IMG/VR virus record: IMGVR_UViG_3300032322_001267
Span: 1-33,626 of that record
From: a virus
Length of the DNA: 33,626 bases
Strand: one strand, 5' to 3'
The position numbers were made by a program, and so were the translations under genes. Under the pieces are notes generated by a model. It saw nothing but the letters and a program-made list of their open reading frames with translations. It was not told the origin of the DNA and did not search any database. This document shows, one piece after another, positions 8,317 through 32,978 of the stretch. Position 1 is the stretch's first letter, and each line of letters begins with the position of its first letter.

Positions 8317-9429
8317 TTACCACCCGGTCGCCGGGAAGCGCCCGGCACGCAGCGGCTCTTGCACCGTGCGAAAGATGTCCGCGTAGGTTTGTCCCACCGT
8401 CTCCAGCCGATACCGCTGCCGCGCCAAGCTGCGCACCGTGCCGCGGTCCAGATGTCCCACCTCGTCCAGCGCCCGCGTGAAATCCGCTAGGGTGTTGCAC
8501 CGGATGCCGGTCTGCCCGTGCAGCACCGTCTCGGCGAACGCCCCGAAGTCCGACGTGATGGCGGGCGTGCCGCACAGCGCCGCCTCCACCACGGCCCCGC
8601 AGAACGGCTCCGCGTAGCGGCTCGGGGCCACGATGGCCGTGGCGTTGCCCAAGAACTCGGCCCGCTCCGTGGTCAGGGGTCCGACAAATTCGACGTTCGC
8701 GGGCGCCTCGCCGAAAGCGTCCGGGTCACCCTGTCCCGCCAGGCGGAACCGCAGGTCCGGGCGGCGCCGCGCCAGCTCCAGCACCACGCCGACGCCCTTG
8801 CCCTCGGTCAGCCGCCCAAGGAAGGCGATGTAGTCGCCCTTCCCGCGCCCGCGGGGCCACTCGTCCACGTCATAGTAGTTAGGCGCCACGAACTCCAGCC
8901 GCGGCGAGTCGAGCTGCACGCCGTGCCGCCCCTCCTTGGCCATGACGCCATGCCGCACCGCGTAGCTCTCGTAGATGCGCCACGGCAGCAGGCAGTCGTA
9001 GTACCCGATCCCCGACTCAATCGCCCCGGCGCCAGCGGCCAGCACCGGCAGCCCGCGGATGGCCGCGGCGTGCGCGTGGCCGAACGGCAGCAGGATCAGG
9101 TCGCCTGGTTCTACCCGCTCCTTGAGCTCCTCGCGGGCATACAGGTTCCACTGACGGTAGACCGGCGAGCCGTCCACGGCGTCCGCCCCGTAGAAGCCGC
9201 GCCCGACTTCGTGGTAGGCGTGGCCCAGCAGCGCCTGGTGCTCGTCCTGCTCCATCAGCACCACGTCCTCGGTCGCCCCCGTCTCGCTGCCCGCGACCCC
9301 GTAGTGTATCACGCGGTAGCCGTGCGGGAACAGCATGGGGCCGAATCGGGCGCACTTGGTCGTAAACGCACAGTGCGAAAAGTCCCGGTGCGTCACGGTA
9401 TGCGGCACGGAAAGCAGGTGCAGTTGCAT
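8317..9429 (-). CDS. GT-B fold glycosyltransferase, GT4-like (370 aa)
   Basis: The C-terminal half carries the nucleotide-sugar binding half of a GT4-type enzyme: DYIAFLGRLTEGKGVGVVLE (about residues 197-216), FRLAGQGDP, NVEFVGPLTTERAEFLGNAT, AIVAPSRYAEPFCGAVVEAALCGTPAIT with the E-x(7)-E-like segment, then GQTGIRCNTLADFTRAL. These enzymes move a sugar from an activated donor to an acceptor in the cytoplasm. ATG 9429 begins 2 bp after the stop of the large tail protein; TTG 9435 is an alternative. Position between tail and lysis genes suggests modification of virion proteins or of host surface glycans; the acceptor is unknown. Confidence 0.85.
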   Translation of the reverse strand: MQLHLLSVPHTVTHRDFSHCAFTTKCARFGPMLFPHGYRVIHYGVAGSETGATEDVVLMEQDEHQALLGHAYHEVGRGFYGADAVDGSPVYRQWNLYAREELKERVEPGDLILLPFGHAHAAAIRGLPVLAAGAGAIESGIGYYDCLLPWRIYESYAVRHGVMAKEGRHGVQLDSPRLEFVAPNYYDVDEWPRGRGKGDYIAFLGRLTEGKGVGVVLELARRRPDLRFRLAGQGDPDAFGEAPANVEFVGPLTTERAEFLGNATAIVAPSRYAEPFCGAVVEAALCGTPAITSDFGAFAETVLHGQTGIRCNTLADFTRALDEVGHLDRGTVRSLARQRYRLETVGQTYADIFRTVQEPLRAGRFPATGW

Positions 9430-9431
9430 CG

Positions 9432-12400
9432 TCAAGTCAGGAACGTACCGGCTCGAAAGCGCGACATCAGCACCGTGTCGCTGGAGCGCGCATAAACCGT
9501 CATCTGGTAGGTGGGGCTCACCCCGATAGAATAACCGCTGGTCACCGTCACCGGGCTCGTCTGGTTGGTCAGGAAGCCATCTTCCACCGTGCCGCCCGTG
9601 GTCACCGTGCGGTACTGGAGGTCGTATTGCGTGCCGCTTGGGAAGCCGCTGCCCGTCCAGCTAAACTCGTACTCGTTGGTCACATCGTCCGCGTTCTGGG
9701 TACCGATGGTAATGCTGGCCGACGTGGCGTCCTTGGCGGGGACGTTGACCGACTCGCCGATAGTGATGCTGTCCTTCGTCGCCTTGAACGAGGCCACCTT
9801 GGCCGCGCCGCTGAAGTCGTTGCGGGTGATGGTCTCGGTCCGCGGCGAGGTCCAGCCGCTTACCGATTGCGTTGCGCCATCCAGGGCGTATTCAATGGTG
9901 CCGGTCCACGTAATCGCCAGCGAATAGCTGGAGCTGCCCGGCGTGGTCACGATGTTGAGACTCGGCCCCACCCGCTCAATCGCGGGCACGTCCACCGAGT
10001 CGCTGACCGCGGCCCGGTCGGTTGCCGTCACAAGGAAGGTGATGCGCCCCGTGTTGCCGCCGATGGCGGGCCTGTCCACCGTCACATCGACGTAGCTGCC
10101 CACGGGCTCGGTGACCGTGGTGTTGGTCTCCGGGGTCACCGTCGCCGGGCTCAAGGGGATGGTCGCCGCCAGCGCGTCGGTGACCCACGAGACCGTCGCC
10201 GTATTGGGCGACAGCGCCACCGGACTGGCGACCGCCATGCGGATCGTGAGCTGCGTGCCGCTGTTGGCGACCACGCGCGCCCGCCCGATCAGGGATTGCG
10301 TGGTGGCCACCGGGGCGATGGCCACCGGGTCCGTGTCCGCCGCGTATCCGGTCGCCGTGGCCGTAAAGGTGATCATACCTGCCGGGGCGCCGACCGCAGG
10401 GCGGGGCACGTCGAAGTCGATGAAACTGAGCGCCGTTTCATTCGGGCTGGCAAAGTTGCCCGTCCCGGTGGTCACCGTGTTGCCGCTAGAGTCTGCGGGC
10501 AGGACGCCCGTGAGCCCCTGTGTGGTGTACCGGATGGTCGCCGTGGTGGCCGTGTACGGGTCCGGTACGTTCACCGCCACGCGCACCTTGGCGACCGTCG
10601 CCGTGCTGGTAGACAGCTCCCGCGCCCGCGAGATCACCGGCTTCGTATCGCGGCCCTGTTCCACGATGGTGAACGTGTCGTCGTCGGTCTCGTTCGTCAG
10701 CGTGGCCGACCGGCGCGCCTTGAACGTGGCAAAGCTGTCCCCGCTGAGCGGGGTACCGCGGTTCCAGACCCAGCTCGCTGGGGCACTCGTCCAGACCCCG
10801 ACCGCTGCGCCGCTCGACAGGCTGGCCGCGCCAGACGACGGGCCATTCAGGCCGACGAGCTGTACCTGCGCCCCCGAGATGGCGGCACCCGTGGGGTCTG
10901 TTGCGCTCACCGTGCTCGTGACCTGCGTCGGGCTGCTCGCCGACTGCACCGCCAGGCAGATGATGCCCGAGGCGCCCCGCTGGAACTGGTACTCGAAGAG
11001 CCCCGACTCCGTGCCGCCGCCGTTAATAGCGGTATACGCCAGGCACGAGACGTAGAAGATGGCCCCGATCTCGTAGGGGCCGCTGAAGGTGGCCGAATAG
11101 TTGCGGGCGTTGATCGGGGTCTGCCCCTGCGTGGTCGCGAGGTTGGGTTGGCTCGCCGTGCTGGTGGCAACCCGGATTGAAGCCGTGTCCGTATCGGCGC
11201 TGACGGCTAGTATGAAGTTGCCGTTGATCCCGAACGTCCCGACCACAGACGCCATGTCCGCCGCCGTGCCAGCGTCGAAGCTCTCAATCCCTCCCGCCAC
11301 CACGCGATCCACGCCGTCCACATCGTAGGCCGACACCTCGTATTCGATGTCAAGGAAGCCAGACGACGGCAGGATGTCGATAAGCTGGTACGGCGGCGTG
11401 GTGTCAATAACCCAAACGGACCACGCGCCGCCGTTTGTCCTGCTGCGGAACCGCACCTGCGTCAGCCGCCCTTGCGGGTCGGTGATTACCAGGGTAACGG
11501 TGCCATGAATCGCCGTTTCGGTGGTCTCGACTCGAACAATGACGCCCGTAGGCGCCGGGCGCAGCAGCTCGGCGGGCACACCCCGTGCGATTCCCGACAC
11601 TTCCCCGGTCGCCGCGCTGGTGACGAATCCGCCGAGCGCGTGCTTGGCGCGGTAGTAATAGGTGGTGCCATCACGCGGCAGCCGGTCCACATAAATGGCC
11701 GCAGAGCCGGGTACCCGGGCAATCTCGGCGAACCCGCTGCCGCTGGTCGTGCTGCGCTCAATCACAAAATCCAGCGTCTGGTCGGACGCATAGAGCCCGA
11801 GCGCGATACCCTGCTCCAGTGTGGCGTCATCCAGCAAGGGCACAAACGCAATGCCCGCCGGGCGCGTGGCCGTGCTGCCCGTCCCGCTGGTCGTCACGCT
11901 GGCGGTCGCCACCGGGCCACGCCCGGTCGGCGTGCTATAGGCGATGGCGAGCTGGTACGTGCCCGCCTCCAGCGTCCGGATCACGGTCGACGTGGAGCCG
12001 GGCGGCAGCGTGGTGACCAGGTACGGCTCCCATTGCGCCGGGGCCGAGCCGCCAAGGTAGGCAAACACGAACAGCGGGTAGGCGGTGCTGGTGTTCGTCC
12101 ACGAGATCGCCACGCTGGTGGCGGTCGTGGTGCCCACCGAGATGGCGCCCGGGGTTGGAATCGCCGTCAGGGTGACGCTGGCCCACGCCGTCCAGGCGGA
12201 TGGGCGCCGCCCCGTCTGCGTGGTCCGGGCGCGGGCATAGACCGTCACCCCCGAGCCGACCACAGCGGGAAGGTCCACCGCCCCGGTCGGCACCGTTCCG
12301 GGCGCGTAGGTGGCGAAGGCCGCGCCGTTCGTGGTCGGCGTGCTGGAGCCCGTGGCCCACTCCACTTCGACCGACAGCACCCCGCCGCTATTGATGGTCG

Positions 12401-18979: not shown

Positions 18980-19332
18980 TAGAGGTACCTCGGCTGCTCG
19001 ACCAGCAGCGGCACCACGCCGTCCAGGTCGGGGATCAGCGCGTTCGGTCCCATGCGGACCACCTGGTAGATCGTCTGCCCCGCGTAGGGGATCAGCAGAT
19101 TCGTGCTGGTGGGGTCGATCTGGGCGTAGTAGACGCCCGCCACCCCTTCGGTCAGGGCGAAGTTGCCGAGCCCCGGAATGACGCTCGCCCCGAGCGCGTC
19201 GGTGCAGAAGCTCACGAACCCGTTCGTCCCCGTCCACGTGACGTAGGCGTTCGTGGCGGGGTTGTACCGCGTCAGCTCCACCCGCGCCAGGTACGTGTTG
19301 CGGGGCTGGATTGTCTTGCGCGACTGGCTCAC
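18979..19332 (-). CDS. Small structural protein, beta-rich (117 aa)
   Basis: GTG 19332 overlaps the upstream stop (GTGA). After RNTYLARVELTRYNPATNAY the sequence runs VTWTGTNGFVSFCTDALG, LTEGVAGVYYAQIDPTSTNL and YAGQTIYQVVRMGPNALIPD. The 'GVYYAQID... Y.G..IYQVVR' arrangement resembles a small immunoglobulin-like or carbohydrate-binding sandwich, and such proteins often decorate phage particles. No specific family is recognised. Located between the GAY-LTGQ repeat protein and the gp10-like gene. Confidence 0.6.
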   Translation of the reverse strand: MSQSRKTIQPRNTYLARVELTRYNPATNAYVTWTGTNGFVSFCTDALGASVIPGLGNFALTEGVAGVYYAQIDPTSTNLLIPYAGQTIYQVVRMGPNALIPDLDGVVPLLVEQPRYL

Positions 19333-20075
19333 GGTGCTCCCTCCGAAGTATCGTACGCCACATAGTAGGCGCCGCTGCCCTCCACCAGCGCATAGGCTGG
19401 CCCGCTGCCGTCCACGGCCCGCGCCCGGTAGATCGGCCCCGCCACCAGCCGCGCCGATTGCCCTGTGAGCAAATAGGCGCCCGCCGCGGCCCGCTGGCTA
19501 AGGCGCAGCGCCGCCACCTGCCCGGTGAGCCCATACCCCGGCATCCCGGTCGTCGAGCTGCCCAGCGAGGCCATGGGCGCCGACGCCAGGGGCGGCTGCG
19601 GCCCGCCGGTGCCCAGCGCCGCGGCGTCCCCGCGCAGCACGTAGCGCGCCCGTGCCGGTTGCCCGTCGACCTGGTACGCACCCGCCGCGCCGACCAGCGC
19701 CACCCCGATACGGAAGATGGCGGGCTGCCCCGTGACGGCGACCGCGCCCGCGTCTGCCGGCATGGTGCGCCCACGGCCGAGCGTGGCGTCCTGCCCGGTG
19801 ACCGTGTAGGCGCCCGCCGCGCTGGCCCGCGTGAGCCGCAGGCTGGCGGGCTGCCCGGTCAGGTAGAAGTCGCCCGTCTGACACCGGAAGAACAGCGACG
19901 GGTCCAGCTCGGCGTCTTGCCCGGTGAGCGTGTACGCCCCTGCCCCGCCGCCGACGCCCAGCCCCCAGGTGGCGTCCTGCCCCGTGACGGCGTAGCTGCC
20001 CGCATCGCCTGCCAGCGCAATCGCCAGCCCGAGCGAAGCGAGCGGCGCCGCCGCCATCGGGGTGAAGCCAAGCAT
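19329..20075 (-). CDS. Structural protein with eight 'GAYxLTGQ' repeats (248 aa)
   Basis: About eight copies of a ~20-residue unit are visible, each with the core G-[AS]-[YF]-x-[LV]-[TD]-G-Q-x-A: AGSYAVTGQDATWG, AGAYTLTGQDAELD, GDFYLTGQPASLR, AGAYTVTGQDATLG, AGAVAVTGQPAIFR, AGAYQVDGQPARAR, PGYGLTGQVAALR, AGAYLLTGQSARLV. I recall similar repeat proteins from tail regions of uncultured-phage genomes, without known function. The regular Tyr/Gly spacing suggests a beta-solenoid or fibre-like rod. The N-terminus is Ala/Leu-rich; the C-terminus (ALVEGSGAYYVAYDTSEGAP) is tyrosine-rich. Start ATG 20075 lies 1 bp after the previous stop. Confidence 0.7.
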   Translation of the reverse strand: MLGFTPMAAAPLASLGLAIALAGDAGSYAVTGQDATWGLGVGGGAGAYTLTGQDAELDPSLFFRCQTGDFYLTGQPASLRLTRASAAGAYTVTGQDATLGRGRTMPADAGAVAVTGQPAIFRIGVALVGAAGAYQVDGQPARARYVLRGDAAALGTGGPQPPLASAPMASLGSSTTGMPGYGLTGQVAALRLSQRAAAGAYLLTGQSARLVAGPIYRARAVDGSGPAYALVEGSGAYYVAYDTSEGAP

Positions 20076-24104: not shown

Positions 24105-24661
24105 TGGGCCACCCCCAGCCGGAACAGGCGCAGGCTCTTGACCACCCGCGCCACCGTCTCCCGGCTCGCGTCCCAGCTTATCGTGGTGTCGCCCGCCTTC
24201 TCGCTGGCCGCGCCCGGGGTGCGGCGCTGGTACAGGTCGGCAGCAAGGTCCAGAATCATCTCGGTCAGCAGCGGCTCGATGCGCGCATAGTCCGACCGCA
24301 GGGACAGGCCGCAGCTCGCGGTTATCGTATACGGCCCGTTATAGAAACTGGTCAGCGGCTTGGCATAGATCATGCCTGACGCCCCATACACGGTATACGT
24401 GGTCGGGTCCACGGTCGCGCCCTCGCTGTCGGTGATGCTGACCGACGCAATCGGACGCCGCGGGAAGATCAGGCTGGTGACCGGCTCGTCCAGCGACTCG
24501 GCCCGGTCTACCGCGGTCTGGCTCTCGGCGGTGATCGGGCAGTCGATCCACCCCTCCACCATCGCCTGCGCCCGCGCCACCAGCGCGGCCAGCAGCGCGT
24601 TCTCCGCGTTGGTCTCGATCCGCAGGTACGTCTTGAGGTCGGTGCTAGTCGGCAGCGCCAC
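24101..24661 (-). CDS. Head-tail connector (gp6-like adaptor) (186 aa)
   Basis: Start GTG 24661 lies 17 bp inside the glycosyltransferase gene, and longer in-frame readings are its shadow. Residues 3-40 (ALPTSTDLKTYLRIETNAEN, LLAALVARAQAMVEGWIDCP) match the N-terminus of gp6-type connectors: D-L-K-x-Y-L-R-I-x-x-x-x-[DE]-[ND]-x-L-[IL]. A beta section (SLIFPRRPIASVSITDSEG, TVDPTTYTVYGASGMIYAK) and a C-terminal helix (IEPLLTEMILDLAADLYQRR) complete the fold. The protein forms the ring under the portal. Confidence 0.82.
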   Translation of the reverse strand: MALPTSTDLKTYLRIETNAENALLAALVARAQAMVEGWIDCPITAESQTAVDRAESLDEPVTSLIFPRRPIASVSITDSEGATVDPTTYTVYGASGMIYAKPLTSFYNGPYTITASCGLSLRSDYARIEPLLTEMILDLAADLYQRRTPGAASEKAGDTTISWDASRETVARVVKSLRLFRLGVAQ

Positions 24662-26030
24662 GGACGGCCTCGCGCAGGATGGTGGCGTACTTGGCCCCGA
24701 CGACCGGGTAGTCGTGGTGGGCCACGGTGTAATCGTATACGCGGCGCGCCTCGGCGGCGTAGTGGCCACTGTCAACGCACAGCCGCCGCACCGCCTCGCG
24801 CAGCTCCTCGCGGCTGTCGGCAAACGTCCACGGGCACGGGATGCCCAGCTTCGCCAGGTCGTCCACGGCGCCATGATCGCCCGCGATGACCGGCAGCCCC
24901 ATCGCCGCGCCCTCCAGCCCCGAGCCCTGCATACCGAGCCAGAAAGAGTCGAACACCACGTGGCACGTGGCCTTGAGCGCCAGCGCCTCGCCGTGGCTCA
25001 TGTCCTCGATCAGCACCGGCTCCACGGGCAGGCCGTAGTCCTTGAGATAGCCCATGACGGCCAAGAAGTCCGACGTGCCCTTGATCTCGCGCCGGGTCGG
25101 GCTGTGCGCCACGCGCAGCCGCCCGCCTTCCCACGGCGGCGGGTAGCGCGTCACGCTCGCCCGCAGCGCCTGGTAATTCTTCACGGGCATCGGGATCGGC
25201 AGCCAATGCTCCACCCCGTGCCGGTGGTGGTAAGGCCGCGCCCCGAACGTCACGCTGCGCAGCTTCTCGTCCGTGTCCCGGTCGCGGTACGTCACCCGCG
25301 GGTCGCCCGGGGGCAGGCTACCGTGGTAGGTCACCGCCACCCGCTGCCGCTCGGTCGGGGCTACCCGCAGCTTTTGGAACAGGCCGCGGTAGTCCATGTG
25401 GCAGTGAATCACGTCAGCCGTCGCGGCCAGCACGTCCACCGTCACCCGGTGGGCGTCCCCGTCCCACTGCCGCCAGTGGCAGTGCGGGTTGGTATAGTCG
25501 TAGCGTACCAGCGCCGACAGCACGCCCGGGGCCGTGTTGGCCGCGGAATGATAGCGGTAGACCGAGCTCCCCGGATCGTACTCGGTGATCTGGAGCACGC
25601 GCAGCGCGTCCGGGGTCGGGTCCGCCGCGGTGTAGTGCTCGGGCACCTCCGGGGGCGACAAGATCCGCCCCGTCCCGCCCCACAGGCGAGCGATGCCCGC
25701 CTCGTCCACCACCAGCGCGTTCGTGGCCAGCCCCGGGGACATCTGTGTGGCGGCCTCCTCGAACGCGGCCCGCAGGCTGGCGCCCATCGCCCACGCCATC
25801 GGATGCGACAGCACCAGCCCCCACTGCACCAGATCGCCCACCCGGTCGGCGGGCACCTCGAACACCTCCCGCGCCGCACGCCGCACGCCACCAATGATGC
25901 AGGGCTGGATCGCCATGACCTTGGCCGCGGCGGGCGCGGGCGTCGGGGGCACTACGGCCTCGGCCACCGGGGGGAGCGCCCCGGTGGCCTTGGCCTTCCT
26001 GCTTGCCGCCTTACGAGCTGGCGGGGACAT
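24645..26030 (-). CDS. Glycosyltransferase with N-terminal phage domain (461 aa)
   Basis: ATG 26030 lies 20 bp inside the capsid gene end. Residues 1-37 are Lys/Ala/Pro-rich. Residues about 38-75 (MAIQPCIIGGVRRAAREVFE, VPADRVGDLVQWGLVLSHP) look like a small domain often encoded on its own next to phage capsid genes. Residues about 140-450 look like a GT-B enzyme: LRVLQITEYDPGSSVYRYHS, ADVIHCHMDYRGLFQKL, RVAVTYHGSLP in the N-half; GRLRVAHSPTRREIKGTSDF, CHVVFDSFWLGMQGSGLEGA with AMGLPVIAGDHGAVDDL in the C-half. A sugar-transfer role, perhaps on the capsid, is inferred. Donor and acceptor unknown. Confidence 0.8.
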   Translation of the reverse strand: MSPPARKAASRKAKATGALPPVAEAVVPPTPAPAAAKVMAIQPCIIGGVRRAAREVFEVPADRVGDLVQWGLVLSHPMAWAMGASLRAAFEEAATQMSPGLATNALVVDEAGIARLWGGTGRILSPPEVPEHYTAADPTPDALRVLQITEYDPGSSVYRYHSAANTAPGVLSALVRYDYTNPHCHWRQWDGDAHRVTVDVLAATADVIHCHMDYRGLFQKLRVAPTERQRVAVTYHGSLPPGDPRVTYRDRDTDEKLRSVTFGARPYHHRHGVEHWLPIPMPVKNYQALRASVTRYPPPWEGGRLRVAHSPTRREIKGTSDFLAVMGYLKDYGLPVEPVLIEDMSHGEALALKATCHVVFDSFWLGMQGSGLEGAAMGLPVIAGDHGAVDDLAKLGIPCPWTFADSREELREAVRRLCVDSGHYAAEARRVYDYTVAHHDYPVVGAKYATILREAVRGAAD

Positions 26031-27369
26031 CCAGCACGACGAACGGGCTGTGCGGATCGACCTTCACGCCCGCCACCGTCTTGTAGGCGTAGGTGGACGT
26101 GGGGATCGGGATGCCGCCACCACGCGCCAGGAAGCGATACGTGGTGATATCCTGCACGAACTTCACGTGGATCGAGCTCTCCACCGTCAGGGCCTGCCGC
26201 AGCCCCATGGCGTAGAAGTCGCCGTTGACCAGCGCCACGTCCCCCTTGGTGCCCAGCGAGTTGAGCAGATCGGTGACGATGACCGGCAGCCCGAGGAGCA
26301 GCATGGTGGGACGGTCCCGCAGGTTCGCGATCCAGGTGACCATCGTGTTGTTCGTGGTCTGCATCGCGAAGAGCTGCGCCAGCACCCGGCGCGAGATCAT
26401 CCACGCCGAGTTGGGGCCGATGGTGTGGCGCTCGTACATGGCGAAGGCGTCCGCCGCGACGAACTGGTTCGACGTGGTGCGGTTGACCGAGATCAGCGCG
26501 CCGTTGTTGCTGTTGAGCGCGCCGAGCGGCTGGGACGAGCCCGTGCCGTCGATGGTCAGGTCTTCGTTCAGCTTGTTGATGATCTGCCCGCCGACCGCCG
26601 TGGTGACCTCGCTGGGCAACTCGCCCGTGAAGTCGTCACCGAGAATTTCGTCGCCGAACTCGGTGATGGCGGCGTACTTGTAGATCTCCAGCAGCCGCTG
26701 GCCGAACACCGGGTCGCGCTCCGGCTTGGTCCCGCCCTCGCCCACGATCGTCACGTTCGCGATCTTACCCGCCATCGGGCGGTTCAGGGTGGTCGTGCCC
26801 TCGTCCTGGATCAGGTACGGGATGCGCAGCGACCGGCCCGGGACGTTGTACCGGCGGGCGTACTGGAAGATGCCCGGCTGGGCGTTGCTGACCGAGAAGA
26901 TCTCGGGCACCTGCGTCAGCGGCAGGAGGTACTCGCCGCCCGACGTGGAGCCGGTGATCGTGCGGGTCATCTCGGCCACGCGGCGCAGCCCCTCGATCTC
27001 GCGGGCGTTCTTGGTCCCCTTGGCCGCGGCGCGCAGGTAGGCGCCGAGCGTCGGGAAGTGGTTCACCAGCACCTTCTTGACGTCCTCCATGGCGTCCTTC
27101 ATGCCGCGGAACTCGGTCCGCTCGGCCTCGCCGCCCACGTCCACGCGGGTCAGCCCCTCGGCCCCGCCCTGCCGGTCAATCTCGGCGTCGGGCGTGAACT
27201 CCGCCGCGGCCTGCGCCCGCATCTCCAGCGCCACGATCCCGTCCGTGCGCGCCTTCACCTCGTCCGCGCTCAGCGTGAGCGCGGGGTCCATCAGCTCGGC
27301 GCGCAGCTTCTGCGCCTGAGCGCGCAGCTCGTTCGCGGCGCGGTTCTTGGTCACCAGCGTGTTCTGCAT
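26011..27369 (-). CDS. Major capsid protein, HK97 fold (452 aa)
   Basis: ATG 27369 follows a near-perfect GGAGGAGACG and gives the expected layout; an upstream in-frame start would overlap the protease gene. Residues 1-120 form a charged helical delta/scaffold segment (RAANELRAQAQKLRAELMDP, LSADEVKARTDGIVALEMRA) of the type removed by the prohead protease. The capsid fold follows: TRTITGSTSGGEYLLPLTQV, IFQYARRYNVPGRSLRIPYL, KYAAITEFGDEILGDDFTGE, LNEDLTIDGTGSSQPLGAL, AWMISRRVLAQLF, LLLGLPVIVTDLLNSLGTKG and the closing VDPHSPFVVLDVPASS. It builds the icosahedral shell. Confidence 0.92.
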   Translation of the reverse strand: MQNTLVTKNRAANELRAQAQKLRAELMDPALTLSADEVKARTDGIVALEMRAQAAAEFTPDAEIDRQGGAEGLTRVDVGGEAERTEFRGMKDAMEDVKKVLVNHFPTLGAYLRAAAKGTKNAREIEGLRRVAEMTRTITGSTSGGEYLLPLTQVPEIFSVSNAQPGIFQYARRYNVPGRSLRIPYLIQDEGTTTLNRPMAGKIANVTIVGEGGTKPERDPVFGQRLLEIYKYAAITEFGDEILGDDFTGELPSEVTTAVGGQIINKLNEDLTIDGTGSSQPLGALNSNNGALISVNRTTSNQFVAADAFAMYERHTIGPNSAWMISRRVLAQLFAMQTTNNTMVTWIANLRDRPTMLLLGLPVIVTDLLNSLGTKGDVALVNGDFYAMGLRQALTVESSIHVKFVQDITTYRFLARGGGIPIPTSTYAYKTVAGVKVDPHSPFVVLDVPASS

Positions 27370-27382
27370 CGTCTCCTCCAGT

Positions 27383-28171
27383 CTATACGGAATAGGTCTG
27401 CCGCACGGCTGCGAGCCGGTCGGCCATCGTGACCGCGGCATCCTCGCGGGCTGGCGGCGGCGTGGGCGGGGCGCAGCAATCCGTGCGCGTGCCCGGGGCC
27501 ACATCGTCCAGGTACGGGGAAGCGTAGGCATCCAGCACCGCCTGCCGGTCGGTGACGCTCAGGGCGTCGAGCGCCGTGCGGGCGGCAATCATGAGCAGGT
27601 CGCGGTCCGTGCGCACGGAGTCGCGGGGCTGCTCGGGAACATCGGTGGTGCTCTTGTCGCTGCGCGCCCCCAGCACGTCGGTGCCGGGGACGCTGGGCAT
27701 CGGGGTCAGGCTGACCTCGCGCAGCTCGATTTCGAGGAACCGATCGACGGTCTTGCCGTCCACCACGGCCATCTCGGTGCGCTTGGGGACGAACCCGATC
27801 GACAGCCCGGTGACGGCGCCCGCGGCCATGACGGCCTTCACGTAGTCCCGCGCTGCGCGCCCCGCCTCGGTGTCGAACAGGTCGGCCACCATGACCAGCC
27901 CGTCGCCCGTGTCGGTCAGGCTGGCGACCACGCCGACGTGGGCGTCCACCTCGCGCTCGTGGTCCATCAGGAAGGGGACGCGCCGCGCCTTGACCTTGGT
28001 GTCAATGGTCCGCTTGGCGCAGCCCCGGGCGAAGACGGTCCCGTAGGTGTCCACCTGCTCGTAGGTCAGGGCCACGCCGGTAATGCGCCCCGCGATCCCC
28101 TCGGGCAGTCCTTCCTGGCGGGCTTCGAGCGCCACCTCGCGGCGGTACAGCGTCACGGTGTCGATGGTCAT
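27383..28171 (-). CDS. Prohead maturation protease, HK97 family (262 aa)
   Basis: The enzyme cleaves the capsid delta domain during maturation. The family motifs are present: GRITGVALTYEQVDTYGTVF at the start, FLMDHEREVDAHVGVV with catalytic His71, then FDTEAGRAARDYVKAVMAAG, VTGLSIGFVPKR with catalytic Ser124 and EIELREVSLTPMPSVPGTDV. The residues after about 165 form a flexible C-terminal tail, including a paired Cys (TRTDCCAPPTPPPAREDA). ATG 28171 overlaps the portal stop (ATGA); a longer in-frame start is rejected. Neighbours portal and capsid confirm the role. Confidence 0.9.
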   Translation of the reverse strand: MTIDTVTLYRREVALEARQEGLPEGIAGRITGVALTYEQVDTYGTVFARGCAKRTIDTKVKARRVPFLMDHEREVDAHVGVVASLTDTGDGLVMVADLFDTEAGRAARDYVKAVMAAGAVTGLSIGFVPKRTEMAVVDGKTVDRFLEIELREVSLTPMPSVPGTDVLGARSDKSTTDVPEQPRDSVRTDRDLLMIAARTALDALSVTDRQAVLDAYASPYLDDVAPGTRTDCCAPPTPPPAREDAAVTMADRLAAVRQTYSV

Positions 28172-31062
28172 AGGACGCCCTGCGCCTCCTCGGGGGTCTC
28201 GGTGTAGTAGACTAGGGTGCAGCGGCAGTTGATGACCTCGCCAGCGGGGCCGCGTGGGTCCAGCGGGTACAGCAGGCCGTTGCCGAACGGGTCGTCGATG
28301 CCGATGGGCGGCTGGGCGCCCGCGGCGGCGTGCGTCGGGCGGGTCTTGCGGTCCTCGAAGGCCAACCATTGCTTGGCCCGGAACAGGTCGCCTTCGGCCT
28401 TCGCTTGGTCCCACGAGCCCTGCGACTGCGCGCCCGCCACCTCGGTCTTGGCGATCCGCGTGGCCCGCACGTCGGTCATCTGCTCGCCGTACACGCTGGC
28501 CTGAATCAGCCGCGCCGTCTCGGCCACGCTCAGCTCGGCCAGCTCGGCGCTGCGGATCGCCGCAGTGACCTGCTTCGCGGTCGTCTCCCCGATCAGCTCG
28601 GCCAGCCGGTCGGCCCGGTTGGCGATGGCCTGTAGCACGCTGGGCGGCTTGAGCCCGAAGCTATAGCCTGCGCCCATGACCTCCTGCGCGCCGAAGAGGT
28701 ACATGCGCTCGATCAGCTCCAGATACGCGGCCCGCCACGCGGCGTAGTATTCCCCGCCCCGGGCGTAGTTTTCCCGGATCTGCCGCTCGATGGCGTCCAG
28801 CACGGGGTCGTCCGCTCGGGTCGCCCGGTCAAACAGCCGCGCCACGGACGCCGCGTCCTCGCGGAACCGGGCGCGGGCGGTCGTATAGAATGGCGCCTCC
28901 TGCCGGTCCATCTCCTCCATCTGCCGCACCCAATAGCGGTACAGGATGTGGTCCTCGTCGGGCTCGCCGTCCTCGCGGTAGAGCGGGGCGCGCAGCACCT
29001 CGGGATGGTGGACCCACCACGGGCGCCCCTGCTCGTCTACCAGGGGGCTGGCATTCCGTACCGGCGCACCAGCGGGAGCCGGTGCCGCATCGTCCGCTGC
29101 CACCGCCGCCACGGCGACACGCGCCGATAGGGCGGCACCACCTGCCGGAACACGTTGCGCCGCACGGTCAAGCGCCTCCTTGGCTTCGTTGATGACGGCC
29201 CGCATCCCATCCAGCCCGATGTCGCCCACCACGAGCCACTTCACCTGGGCGATCACGCCCGCAATCCGCTTGTTCCCCCGGTGCCTCGCCCCCCACGCCT
29301 CGCGCAGCCGCACGGCCCGCTCCTCGGCGGGGCTGTTGGGCGCGCCGCCACGCTTGGCCAGCGGGGCCAAGATGGCGAACTGCCGGTTGCCGCGGACGTT
29401 GCCGCCCTTGCGCCAGATTTCGGGGTACTCGCGCTTCAGGGTCTCGGCCTCGCCCACGGGGAAGCGCCCCCACTGGCTGTTGCGCAGGCTGACGGCCTTG
29501 TCGTCCCCCTTGGCGGGGAAGTCCGTCGCCGGGTCGGCGCGATCCTCCTCCTCGTCGTCCAGCTCGTCGTCGTCCTCGTCGTCCTCGTCCTCCAGCTCCT
29601 CCTCGTCCGTCTCGCCCTGCAACGCCGGGGGCGGGCCGTCCTGCGCGGGGGCCTGCTCCATGACCGCCCGCGGGTCGATCACGGCCACCGCGGCGGGGGT
29701 CAGCGTGGCCCCGGCGGTGACCAGAATCGTGTCGGTGGGCTCAGGGATCGGGGACAGCCGCAGCGCCCGCCGCGACTCCTCCCACGTCCGGAGTCCGTCG
29801 CGGAACTCGGCCCGCACGCGGGTGCTCGTGGCGCTGTCGTCCTCGACCAGCTCGCGCAGCAGATCATGGTCGTAGGTGATCCACACGTCCCCGAACTCGG
29901 GGGCCAGCCAGTGGTTCAGCTCGTCCTCGATCGCGGCCAGCATGGGCTCGATGGTGTGCTGCACCAGCCGTGCCCGCGCCTCGACATACTGCGCGCCCGA
30001 CAGCCCGGCGTCGGACGTGGCGCTCGCGATCCCGATCATCCGCGGGTCCACCCCGAAGGCGGCGCAGATGTCCTCGCGGGACACCCGGCGCAAGTCGGGG
30101 AACTCCAGGTCGGACAGCGTGAACCCCAACGGCTTGATGTCGCGCACGGCCCCGAAGAACGCAGGCGTGCCCCGCTTGCCGCGGTCGACCACGCGGGCCT
30201 TGTAGCGGTCCTGCATGGCGGTGGCGTCATCCTGCGTGGCCTCGTCGGCCAGCAGCACGGCGAACGTGGGGGTGCCGTCGTTGGTCACCACCTGGCGCAC
30301 GTACTTGGTGGCCTCGTTGTCTGCCGCGATGGACGCCAGCGCCGTGGCGCCCCGGGGGAACCCGAAGGCGTCGGGCGTGAAGGGGCGCGGCATCTCCAGG
30401 TCGCGGACGTGGATGATGTCCGCCACGTCCCGCTGCACGATGATCCCCGACCAGTTGGCGTAGTCGTACCGCCGCGGGTCGCCGTCCGCGTCCACCCACA
30501 CCGACTGAAGCGACTCGGGGTTGATCGCCCCCAGCCGCCGCGGCAGGCCGACGCCGGACGGGCCGCGGTCCATCTCCAGCATGGCGTTGCCGTAGCCCAG
30601 AAAATCAATCGCCAGCCGCGCGCGCATGGTGCGGGCGGTGAACCGGGGGCCGGGGTAGTCCAGCAGCCGCTGGAGCGGGTGCGACTCGGGCACGCGGCTC
30701 TCGTAGTCGCCCCGGGCGCGCAGCACGACGAGCGGCACCGACGCCACCACGTCGGCGATCACGCGCATACACGCATGGACGACCGGGTGCTTGCTGAACC
30801 CTTCGGCCCGGATGCTGGCGCCTTCCGGCTTGTACTCCTGCGGATTGGCCGTGCGCACCAGCGACATCTGGGGCGTCCCGCTGGCCAGCCCGTTGGGCGG
30901 CTGCCCGCTGCTTCCGGCGATGGCCGGGAAGTTGGGGTACACCAGCGGGATCACGGCGCGGCTTGCGTCGGGCGCGGTGATGTCCCCGCGCAGCGCCTTC
31001 AGGGCGAGCCCCACGCGCTCGCGCAGGGTCGGGACGGCCACAGGGGCCGGGGCGTCAGCCAT
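28168..31062 (-). CDS. Portal protein fused to MuF-type head morphogenesis domain (964 aa)
   Basis: Residues about 60-460 are an HK97-type portal (SKHPVVHACMRVIADVVASV, PLQRLLDYPGPRFTARTMRA, DIIHVRDLEM, GLSGAQYVEARARLVQHTIE). The portal is the dodecameric DNA gate of the capsid. An acidic Asp/Glu run (about 485-507) leads to KAVSLRNSQWGRFPVGEAET and a ~110-residue helical domain (NVRGNRQFAILAPLAKRGG, then AGVIAQVKWLVVG, about 515-635). The C-terminus (about 866-954) is a Mu gpF-like domain: ATRIAKTEVAGAQSQGSWDQ, WLAFEDRKTRPTHAAA and GEVINCRC. Usual portals have about 400-550 residues, so this is a fusion. Start ATG 31062 is preferred; GTG 31080 is possible, and neither has a strong SD. Confidence 0.88.
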   Translation of the reverse strand: MADAPAPVAVPTLRERVGLALKALRGDITAPDASRAVIPLVYPNFPAIAGSSGQPPNGLASGTPQMSLVRTANPQEYKPEGASIRAEGFSKHPVVHACMRVIADVVASVPLVVLRARGDYESRVPESHPLQRLLDYPGPRFTARTMRARLAIDFLGYGNAMLEMDRGPSGVGLPRRLGAINPESLQSVWVDADGDPRRYDYANWSGIIVQRDVADIIHVRDLEMPRPFTPDAFGFPRGATALASIAADNEATKYVRQVVTNDGTPTFAVLLADEATQDDATAMQDRYKARVVDRGKRGTPAFFGAVRDIKPLGFTLSDLEFPDLRRVSREDICAAFGVDPRMIGIASATSDAGLSGAQYVEARARLVQHTIEPMLAAIEDELNHWLAPEFGDVWITYDHDLLRELVEDDSATSTRVRAEFRDGLRTWEESRRALRLSPIPEPTDTILVTAGATLTPAAVAVIDPRAVMEQAPAQDGPPPALQGETDEEELEDEDDEDDDELDDEEEDRADPATDFPAKGDDKAVSLRNSQWGRFPVGEAETLKREYPEIWRKGGNVRGNRQFAILAPLAKRGGAPNSPAEERAVRLREAWGARHRGNKRIAGVIAQVKWLVVGDIGLDGMRAVINEAKEALDRAAQRVPAGGAALSARVAVAAVAADDAAPAPAGAPVRNASPLVDEQGRPWWVHHPEVLRAPLYREDGEPDEDHILYRYWVRQMEEMDRQEAPFYTTARARFREDAASVARLFDRATRADDPVLDAIERQIRENYARGGEYYAAWRAAYLELIERMYLFGAQEVMGAGYSFGLKPPSVLQAIANRADRLAELIGETTAKQVTAAIRSAELAELSVAETARLIQASVYGEQMTDVRATRIAKTEVAGAQSQGSWDQAKAEGDLFRAKQWLAFEDRKTRPTHAAAGAQPPIGIDDPFGNGLLYPLDPRGPAGEVINCRCTLVYYTETPEEAQGVL

Positions 31063-31111
31063 GGTCCGAACGCTAGGCACAGCGTCTGCCGTGCGCCACC
31101 CGTGCAGTTGA

Positions 31112-32362
31112 CTAGACCACGAACGCTTGGACCTGCTTGAGCATCAAGCTCGACAGCGCCCAGACCAGCGCGTCCACGCGGTCGGGGCTGCCGTCCATGG
31201 CGTCGGGGCGGAAGCTGCTCATCTGCTGCTCGAGGATCGGGAGCTGCCCGACGTGGAACACTCGCCCTTCTTGGTACAGCGCATAGACCGGCTCGGCGCG
31301 GGCCAGCTTTCCCTTCGTGGCCCGGACAGCGACGATGCGGACGCCGTGCGCCTTGTCACCTTGCGCGGCCAGCACGCTGCGGACCATGTCACCGCCTTGG
31401 TTGACCTCGGCCACGATGCTTCCGCCCCACCGCCGCGCAGCGTCGATGGCGACCGCGCCCCATTGCGCGGGGCTATAGCGCCCGCTCAGGTCCTCTAGGA
31501 CGTACCCCCGCTTGTCGCGCCCCAGCCCGACGACGACGATGCCCGTCTCGTTGCTCGCCGTGTTGGCCGTGACGGCGGGGTCCACGCCCACCAGCACGCG
31601 GGCGAAGGTGTCGGGGGCCTGCTCGACGCGCGCTCGCACAATGTCTGCCCCCGTCCACAGCAGCCCCTCGGTGGCGTGCGTCCACTCGCCGAGAAAGACG
31701 TGCCGGTAGCGCTGCGGGTTGGTATCGCGCAGCCGCTCGGCCTGCTCAATGAAGCTAGGCGAAAGGTTGTGGGCGTTCTGCTCGTAGGTGGTGTGGATGT
31801 ACAGCGTGTCGTCCCGCCGCGCGGCCACGAACCGCTCATAGAGAAAGTGCGTCCGCGCGGCCGGGTTGAGGACGAGGACCACGCGGTTCGGGCGGTCTAC
31901 CTGGCGTATGCTATAGTCGATCGTATCGAAGCTTTTCGGGTCCACCAGCTCCTCGGCCTCGTCCAGAACCCAGGTCGTCACGCCCTGAATCGACTTGAGC
32001 CGCGCCGATTGGTTGCCGCTGCTGGTCTTGATGCCGCGGAACAGGATGGCCGAACCGGTGCGCCGGTTGCGGATCGTGTCGCGCGTCACGTCGAAGTCAT
32101 CCGCCAGCCCAAGCAGGTCGATCTTGTCTACAAACTCAGGGATGATCGAAATGCTGGCCGCGACCATCGTCCAGCGGGTAAACAGGATGACGTGCCCCGC
32201 CTCGTAGGTGAGGTTGAGCAGGAACAGCGCGATGTGGAATGACTTGCCCCCGCCGCGCCCGCCCGTCAGGAAGGCATAGCGCCACGCGGGGGCGGGGTTA
32301 AACAGCGGCTGGTAGGCGCTCAGCAGCTCCAGCGGGCGGGGCTCACCCGGCGCGCTGCTCAT
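31112..32362 (-). CDS. terL: Terminase large subunit (416 aa)
   Basis: The motor-nuclease packages DNA through the portal. The ATPase half shows the Walker A LTGGRGGGKSF (about 33-42), FTRWTMVAASISIIPEFV, the Walker B VTTWVLDEAEEL (128-139, D134/E135) and LVLNPA coupling motif (163-168). The nuclease half shows ARVLVGVDPAVTANTASNET (D261), VLEDLSGRYSP (D291) and GSPDRVDALVWAL (D394/D397), the three acidic sites of the RNase H-like fold. Start ATG 32362 overlaps the methyltransferase gene by 20 bp; an earlier in-frame start (32422) is less likely. No intein or interruption is seen. Confidence 0.93.
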   Translation of the reverse strand: MSSAPGEPRPLELLSAYQPLFNPAPAWRYAFLTGGRGGGKSFHIALFLLNLTYEAGHVILFTRWTMVAASISIIPEFVDKIDLLGLADDFDVTRDTIRNRRTGSAILFRGIKTSSGNQSARLKSIQGVTTWVLDEAEELVDPKSFDTIDYSIRQVDRPNRVVLVLNPAARTHFLYERFVAARRDDTLYIHTTYEQNAHNLSPSFIEQAERLRDTNPQRYRHVFLGEWTHATEGLLWTGADIVRARVEQAPDTFARVLVGVDPAVTANTASNETGIVVVGLGRDKRGYVLEDLSGRYSPAQWGAVAIDAARRWGGSIVAEVNQGGDMVRSVLAAQGDKAHGVRIVAVRATKGKLARAEPVYALYQEGRVFHVGQLPILEQQMSSFRPDAMDGSPDRVDALVWALSSLMLKQVQAFVV

Positions 32363-32978
32363 CCATATAGATGGTGAGGATGTGATCGGTGGCCGGTCGC
32401 GCCCAGCTATAGCGCAGGCCACGCGCGGTCAGCCACGCCTCTAGGCGCGAGCGGCTGTAGACATTGCAATAGGTGCCGTGGGCGAGCGTGCGGTCAATGA
32501 CCACCGAGTCTTGCTCGCCCTCCCCGAGCTGGAAGAACACCACGATGACGGCGCGGCGCGCATGGGCCAGCAGCGTCTCCAGCGCGTTGTGGTAGCCGGG
32601 CAGGTGCTCCAGCACATGCCGGCAATATGCCACGTCAGCCTGCCCGTAGTGGTCGACGCTGGCGATGCTGCCGATCGCCACCTTGGCCCCCAACCCCTGC
32701 CCGTAGGCGACCAGCTCGGGGGTAAGCTCCACGGCCCGGTAGCCGATCCACGGGTGGGCGCGCCAATACGTCTGGTAGTCAAGGAACGTGCCGGGGCCGA
32801 ACTCCAGCACGGTCTTGGCCCCGAGCGTCTCCACCTGCTGGAACACGGCGCGGCGGCTGTGCGGGTCCGATTGCTCCAGCCAGCCCGCGAAGGTGCTGCC
32901 GGTGATACCGTGCGCGGCGATGTGGTGCGACCACCAGACTTCATGTGACGCGCGCGAGGCGCTGGTTGGCTCGGTCAC
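32343..32978 (-). CDS. SAM-dependent methyltransferase (211 aa)
   Basis: A class I methyltransferase fold is indicated by motif I TVLEFGPGTFLD (about 56-67, the SAM-binding glycine loop), acidic residue in YRAVELTPELV (motif II), GSIASVDHYGQADVAYCRHV with LEHLPGYHNALE (motif IV/V region) and HARRAVIVVFFQL. There is no NPPY or DPPY typical of DNA adenine methyltransferases and no PC motif of cytosine enzymes, so DNA is not the clear substrate; small molecule, sugar or protein methylation is more likely. The HVLEHLP motif resembles enzymes acting on glycans or small molecules. GTG 32978 overlaps the small terminase stop (GTGA). Confidence 0.8.
   Translation of the reverse strand: MTEPTSASRASHEVWWSHHIAAHGITGSTFAGWLEQSDPHSRRAVFQQVETLGAKTVLEFGPGTFLDYQTYWRAHPWIGYRAVELTPELVAYGQGLGAKVAIGSIASVDHYGQADVAYCRHVLEHLPGYHNALETLLAHARRAVIVVFFQLGEGEQDSVVIDRTLAHGTYCNVYSRSRLEAWLTARGLRYSWARPATDHILTIYMDEQRAG

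What the first reader, a model, noticed from the sequence alone, without database searches (positions are those of the whole stretch)
28168..31062. Portal fused to a MuF head-morphogenesis domain with an inserted SLRNSQW domain and acidic linker
Portal, an acidic run of more than twenty residues, an extra helical domain (about 515-635) and a MuF-like C-terminus form one 964-residue reading frame with no break. MuF proteins are usually separate minor capsid proteins present in few copies; fusion would place one per portal subunit (12 per virion), probably inside the capsid. The SLRNSQW-type domain in the linker has no known role I can name.
Basis: partly seen in the sequence, partly recalled or inferred. 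Interest (0 to 1): 0.7.

Follow-up and report, generated by a model that had tools for sequence, protein, structure and literature searches.

The report
Movable domain inside phage portal fusion
A virus's DNA-gateway protein is fused to an inner head protein and carries between them a small, previously undescribed domain that related viruses hang, one per genome, on different proteins of the head interior, which suggests an interchangeable tool that works inside the virus head.

Summary
On the minus strand, 28168-31080 (964 aa from the ATG at 31062) is one open frame: HK97-type portal, acidic linker, helical domain, MuF. The portal-MuF fusion itself is ordinary: PHROG 2662 spans it, and isolated phages such as Geobacillus GBK2 have it.

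The inserted domain, here called SLR, is the real finding. It has no match in Pfam, PHROGs, NCBIfam or PADLOC, and no PDB sequence match. AlphaFold2 gives a confident six-helix bead (pLDDT 91.6) between two disordered tethers. It is common in viral contigs (at least 592 matches in one capped scan) but nearly absent from cellular genomes. It sits on several proteins: portal-MuF fusions, MuF alone, either end of the S78 prohead protease, DUF5824-type proteins, or solo genes. All 24 records checked hold exactly one copy. The gene lies downstream of the portal in 111 of 111 loci where a portal is visible. Close relatives with 95-96% identical portals lack it by a clean in-frame gap of roughly 370 bp. 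The domain reached the protease N-terminus at least twice (AU p = 0.002).

Best reading: a portable accessory domain of the head interior. What it does there (DNA contact, ejected helper, assembly) is inferred, not shown.

The parts
28168..31080 (-). Whole portal-SLR-MuF frame (970 aa from GTG 31080; 964 aa from ATG 31062)
   Evidence: no stop; tblastn relatives over full length
29767..30786 (-). HK97-family portal domain, aa 99-438
   Evidence: Pfam PF04860 E 8.5e-47; Foldseek to HK97 portal 8cez E 7.9e-13
29494..29715 (-). Low-confidence tether, aa 456-529, containing the acidic run (aa 487-517, net charge -21)
   Evidence: AF2 pLDDT under 50; charge
29155..29523 (-). SLR domain, aa 520-642: undescribed six-helix domain, start motif TDFP..GDDKAVSLRNSQW
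   Evidence: AF2 pLDDT 91.6; 48-sequence alignment A3; no library match
29047..29154 (-). Second low-confidence tether, Ala/Pro-rich, aa 643-678
   Evidence: AF2 pLDDT under 50
28498..29010 (-). Helical region preceding MuF, aa 691-861
   Evidence: phrog_2468 'head morphogenesis' match starts at aa 804; AF2 helices
28213..28497 (-). MuF domain, aa 862-956, ending INCRC
   Evidence: Pfam PF04233 E 3.3e-10; C952-R953-C954 invariant among 34 relatives
27383..28171 (-). S78 prohead protease, next gene; its ATG overlaps the fusion's TGA (ATGA)
   Evidence: Pfam PF04586 E 1.3e-12; sequence
31112..32422 (-). Terminase large subunit, preceding gene
   Evidence: Pfam PF04466 E 1.2e-26
26011..27531 (-). 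Major capsid protein frame, next after the protease
   Evidence: Pfam PF05065 E 4.6e-20

Best explanation
The gene encodes an HK97-type portal whose C-terminal end, which faces the prohead interior in known portals, is tethered to a folded SLR bead and then to a MuF minor capsid domain. SLR is a portable accessory domain of the head interior: each phage keeps one copy, encoded just downstream of the portal, on whichever interior head protein is available. Most likely it works from inside the head on the packaged or entering DNA, or is ejected with it, and is not needed for basic assembly. Shown: the anatomy, the domain family, one copy per record, the changing carriers, presence/absence among near-identical relatives, and purifying selection. 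Inferred: location inside the capsid, copy number of 12, action on DNA or after ejection.
For: Portal and MuF assignments. SLR folds as a confident independent bead between two low-confidence stretches in the full-length model. Carriers among 139 distinct domains: portal-SLR-MuF 61, SLR-S78 20, portal-SLR 11 (mostly cut by contig ends), SLR-MuF 10, S78-SLR 7, the rest solo or unassigned; several unassigned ones are DUF5824-type proteins. Exactly one SLR in each of 24 records (G014's two hits are one domain cut by the contig ends). Portal upstream in 111 of 111 loci with a visible portal, none with a portal downstream. In-frame presence/absence of roughly 370 bp beside 95-96% identical portals, with similar terminase and protease identity in SLR+ and SLR- relatives. 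No SLR elsewhere in 13 records of relatives lacking it. dN/dS about 0.1-0.28. Net positive charge in 45 of 48 copies. L076 carries an SLR 67-72% identical to the window's on its protease, with an unoccupied portal-MuF linker. SLR-S78 as one clade is rejected, AU p = 0.002.
Against: No structural or biochemical data place SLR inside a capsid or on DNA. S78 proteases normally digest themselves and leave the head, so SLR on a protease is hard to reconcile with a role that lasts in the virion unless it is cut free and retained. Viral records are often incomplete, so 'absent' and 'one per genome' are per record. Positive charge is not universal (-5 in L148, -6 in L139, 0 in L146).
Confidence: 0.55

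Rival explanations
1. SLR is a prohead assembly factor: a core or docking domain that brings portal, MuF or protease together with capsid protein or scaffold, and can do so from any of them.
For: Encoded between portal and protease in most arrangements (79 loci with both visible); solo genes lie between the neck gene and the protease in larger phages (L191, L184, L228); always on head-morphogenesis proteins.
Against: Relatives with 95-96% identical portal and about 97% identical terminase lack the domain entirely and still encode the rest of the head module. Portal and protease do different jobs, so one docking role for both is not obvious.
Confidence: 0.27
2. SLR is an ejected effector, for example an anti-defence or host-modifying domain, carried in on an interior head protein and freed by the prohead protease or at ejection.
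For: Other effector-like domains are fused to MuF and portal (PBECR, 2H; PMC5512222); phage P1 packages DarA/Hdf against the inner capsid wall (PMC12810830); SLR is virus-restricted, patchy and strongly conserved at polar residues (R593, E594, R599, H600, K614, N561). This overlaps the best explanation, which does not decide between the two.
Against: No match to any known effector, toxin or defence model. No cleavage site was shown. The usual MuF toxin layout (C-terminal domain plus small immunity gene) is absent.
Confidence: 0.25
3. SLR is a passive or selfish insert tolerated in linkers.
For: It sits between disordered tethers and is present or absent among close relatives.
Against: dN/dS about 0.1-0.28; many invariant polar residues; one copy per record; solo genes exist; no nuclease or splicing motif seen.
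Confidence: 0.06
4. The long frame is a sequencing or assembly artefact joining separate genes.
For: None in the window; one MAG relative (L149) does break inside SLR at a run of ten A.
Against: The same full-length frame occurs in many independent contigs, at 90-98% identity in the nearest ones.
Confidence: 0.01

Closest known systems
PHROG 2662 portal proteins / portal-MuF fusions (e.g. Geobacillus phage GBK2, Streptomyces phage mu1/6)
   Same: HK97-type portal and MuF in one protein, followed by the protease or prohead protein
   Different: GBK2's fusion is 685 aa, with no SLR match; in the phage collection SLR was found only in Salinibacter phages
SPP1 gp7 / Mu gpF (MuF minor head proteins)
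   Same: MuF domain with C-terminal CRC signature; MuF acts at the portal
   Different: There MuF is a separate protein, 1-2 copies per capsid for gp7 (PMC5576092); here it is fused, so up to one per portal subunit
MuF polymorphic toxins (PMC5576092) and MuF/portal fusions with PBECR or 2H domains (PMC5512222)
   Same: An extra domain carried by MuF or portal, thought to ride in the head
   Different: SLR lies before MuF rather than after it, matches no toxin or RNase model, has no immunity gene, and also occurs on proteases and solo
Packaged head-interior proteins such as P1 DarA/Hdf (PMC12810830) and T4 internal proteins
   Same: Accessory proteins of the head interior; P1 Dar proteins are ejected with the DNA
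   Different: No sequence match found; SLR is mostly a domain borrowed by structural proteins
Mimivirus sulfhydryl oxidase R596 C-terminal ORFan domain (3td7; PMC3509050)
   Same: Best structural match: Z 7.5, rmsd 3.4 A, 111 residues aligned, six helices; next match Z 2.4
   Different: 9% identity, different carrier; Z under 13 for an all-helical domain can be a common arrangement

Membership tests
HK97-family phage portal (PF04860) | Portal domain above curated cut-off | tested here: met
   160.3 bits against 39.1; Foldseek to HK97 and GTA portals. The stricter NCBIfam TIGR01537 is below its cut-off, 90.8 of 112.05
HK97-family phage portal (PF04860) | Dodecameric ring at one vertex | not testable with these tools
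   No oligomer prediction available
MuF / Phage_Mu_F (PF04233) | MuF domain above curated cut-off with C-terminal CRC signature | tested here: met
   41.1 bits against 29.6; CRC invariant in 34 relatives
MuF / Phage_Mu_F (PF04233) | Separate gene directly downstream of the portal | tested here: not met
   Same frame as the portal. This is the usual context, not a requirement
PHROG 2662 (portal-MuF fusion) | One profile spanning both parts | tested here: met
   aa 92-963, E 2.3e-76
MuF polymorphic toxin | Toxin domain C-terminal to MuF followed by a small immunity gene | tested here: not met
   MuF ends 14 residues before the stop and the next gene is an S78 protease
PBECR / 2H effector fusions | Recognisable PBECR or 2H domain | tested here: inconclusive
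   No such family among the Pfam or NCBIfam matches; no dedicated profile was run
R596 ORFan-domain fold | Same helix order and packing over the whole domain | tested here: inconclusive
   Z 7.5 over 111 residues; Foldseek alone found nothing significant; not confirmed with a second model

The most novel reading that the evidence does not exclude
SLR belongs to a guild of small domain families (SLR, DUF5824-like, a 'GMT...GGDxGxxWA' domain, and others) that environmental phages swap among portal, MuF and protease as interchangeable head-interior tools, ejected with the DNA and acting against host barriers.
Probability: 0.25. Interest if true: 0.8.

Novelty: new variant of a known kind. Interest (0 to 1): 0.55.

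Why it matters
The domain is widespread in uncultured viruses yet absent from the family libraries searched. Its pattern (one copy, moving between interior head proteins, dispensable among close relatives) suggests that being inside the head matters more than the carrier. That makes the role of phage head-interior accessory domains testable, and a cultured system exists: 183 Salinibacter ruber phage records carry it.

Tried and rejected
PDB sequence search with the SLR profile: nothing up to E 10. Foldseek against PDB with the SLR model: nothing significant. BFVD: only two clear hits, both unnamed viral proteins. PADLOC: one weak LmuB hit (E 0.004) in the L176 solo protein, over its C-terminal end; rejected as chance. 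Acidic run as partner of SLR: rejected, it is also present without SLR. Mutual exclusion of SLR and the small NGAQ helical module: rejected, L029 has both, L012 neither. SLR moved elsewhere in the genome of SLR-lacking relatives: no copy in 13 records. Prophage or cellular origin: only 2 loci in 84,980 species by pattern scan, and 1 of 387 and 1 of 393 genomes by profile. The regex tally of distant relatives misses an SLR (L024) and was not used. The capsid-protein frame used was wrong, so its MCP identities were not used, and its SLR+/- labels are reliable only for L001-L057.

Full report
WHAT IS THERE. The finding lies on the minus strand. Frame 28168-31080 gives 970 residues from GTG 31080, or 964 from ATG 31062, with no stop. 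The window is one whole IMG/VR record of 33,626 bases. Gene order on this strand is terminase large subunit, portal-SLR-MuF, S78 prohead protease, major capsid protein. The protease ATG overlaps the fusion's TGA as ATGA. Pfam gives Phage_portal at aa 99-438 (E 8.5e-47) and Phage_Mu_F at aa 862-956 (E 3.3e-10).

THE FUSION IS KNOWN. PHROG 2662 'portal protein' runs from aa 92 to 963 (E 2.3e-76). Isolated phages such as Geobacillus GBK2 and Streptomyces mu1/6 have one protein matching both ends. Iyer et al. (PMC5512222) describe MuF and portal fusions with effector-like domains, so the fusion itself is not the news.

THE INSERTED DOMAIN. Residues 520-642 match nothing in Pfam, PHROGs, NCBIfam or PADLOC, and no PDB sequence by profile. 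With 48 relatives, AlphaFold2 gives six helices at mean pLDDT 91.6, pTM 0.83. In the full-length model the domain stays ordered while 456-529 and 643-678 fall below pLDDT 50: a bead on two tethers. Invariant residues include W556, G560, N561, G564, R593, E594, W596, R599, H600, Q612, K614, W615. Net charge is positive in 45 of 48 copies. dN/dS is about 0.1-0.28, similar to or lower than MuF in most pairs.

FOLD. Foldseek finds no significant PDB match. VIA-align gives one match well above the rest: the C-terminal ORFan domain of mimivirus sulfhydryl oxidase R596, Z 7.5, 3.4 A over 111 residues, next Z 2.4. Its authors called that fold new, with best earlier Z 3.6 over 64 residues (PMC3509050). 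All-helical matches at this Z can be chance, so this is a lead only.

DISTRIBUTION. Among 84,980 prokaryote species the pattern scan found two loci, both in head-gene context. Profile searches of about 390 genomes in each of those two phyla found only the known ones. Among phage records only 183 Salinibacter phages match. One read in detail carries SLR upstream of an S78-like protease region in the same protein, behind a separate MuF gene.

CARRIERS. Of 139 distinct copies: portal-SLR-MuF 61, SLR-S78 20, portal-SLR 11 (mostly contig-cut), SLR-MuF 10, S78-SLR 7, the rest solo or unassigned. DUF5824 co-occurs in several of the unassigned ones. Each of 24 records holds exactly one SLR whatever its carrier. 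The portal gene lies upstream in 111 of 111 loci where it is visible; 79 lie between portal and protease.

MOVEMENT. Near relatives with 95-96% identical portals carry SLR only, an NGAQ helical module only, or neither; the more distant L029 carries both. SLR is a clean in-frame block just after the acidic run. Thirteen records of relatives lacking SLR in the portal fusion have no SLR elsewhere. L076 has an SLR 67-72% identical to the window's on the N-terminus of its protease, while its portal-MuF linker, in a protein about 40% identical to those of relatives, has none. On the domain tree the carrier label needs 7 changes. Holding all SLR-S78 copies as one clade is rejected (AU p = 0.002); holding the portal/MuF-side copies together is not clearly rejected (p = 0.067).

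INTERPRETATION. All known carriers work on the inside of the prohead (established knowledge of portals, MuF and S78 proteases). The shared factor is location, not carrier. Together with dispensability among near relatives and strong purifying selection this points to an accessory function exerted inside the head or on DNA entry. Whether SLR contacts DNA, is ejected as an effector, or helps assembly cannot be decided from sequence.

OTHER MODULES. The same carriers hold other small domains. A GMT...GGDxGxxWA domain occurs in the portal-MuF linker of L067/L068, and in proteins annotated prohead protease in HGTV-1 and portal or head morphogenesis in Halorubrum virus 28. DUF5824-like stretches occur beside SLR in L138, L144, L164, L241 and Salinibacter phages. 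This hints at a wider toolbox that was not mapped.

LIMITS.

Noticed in passing
window 8317-9435 and 24645-26030, minus strand: Two glycosyltransferase-like genes in the structural region; the first is a clear group 1 glycosyltransferase (Pfam E 8e-18), the second a weak match lying directly after the capsid gene.
   Followed up: partly
L149:3263-6077: In a Verrucomicrobiales MAG the portal-SLR-MuF frame is split inside SLR at a run of ten A, leaving overlapping portal-SLR and SLR-MuF frames; slippage, programmed frameshift or sequencing error.
   Followed up: partly
L067, L068 linkers; phage records KC292026, MZ334528: A separate ~95-aa domain (RGMTAVGIARARDL...GGDDGFAWA) occurs in portal-MuF linkers, a prohead protease and other head proteins, like SLR.
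   Followed up: partly
L138, L144, L164, L241, L143, L069: DUF5824-like stretches (WAYARVNSFLYALRNG...HDTDLLP) sit beside SLR or on the portal C-terminus.
   Followed up: partly
L011 and L031 (contig IMGVR_UViG_3300044858_003100, 36245 bases): One SLR is split over the two contig ends, suggesting a circularly permuted genome of about 36 kb; the window at 33.6 kb may be nearly complete.
   Followed up: no
window 19329-20075, minus strand: Open frame made of repeats around (Y/V)xLTGQDAxL; not examined.
   Followed up: no
L176:3986-4408: Solo SLR protein ends in a CxxC tail (RCLTCGRRLTRPEQ), possibly half a zinc site.
   Followed up: no
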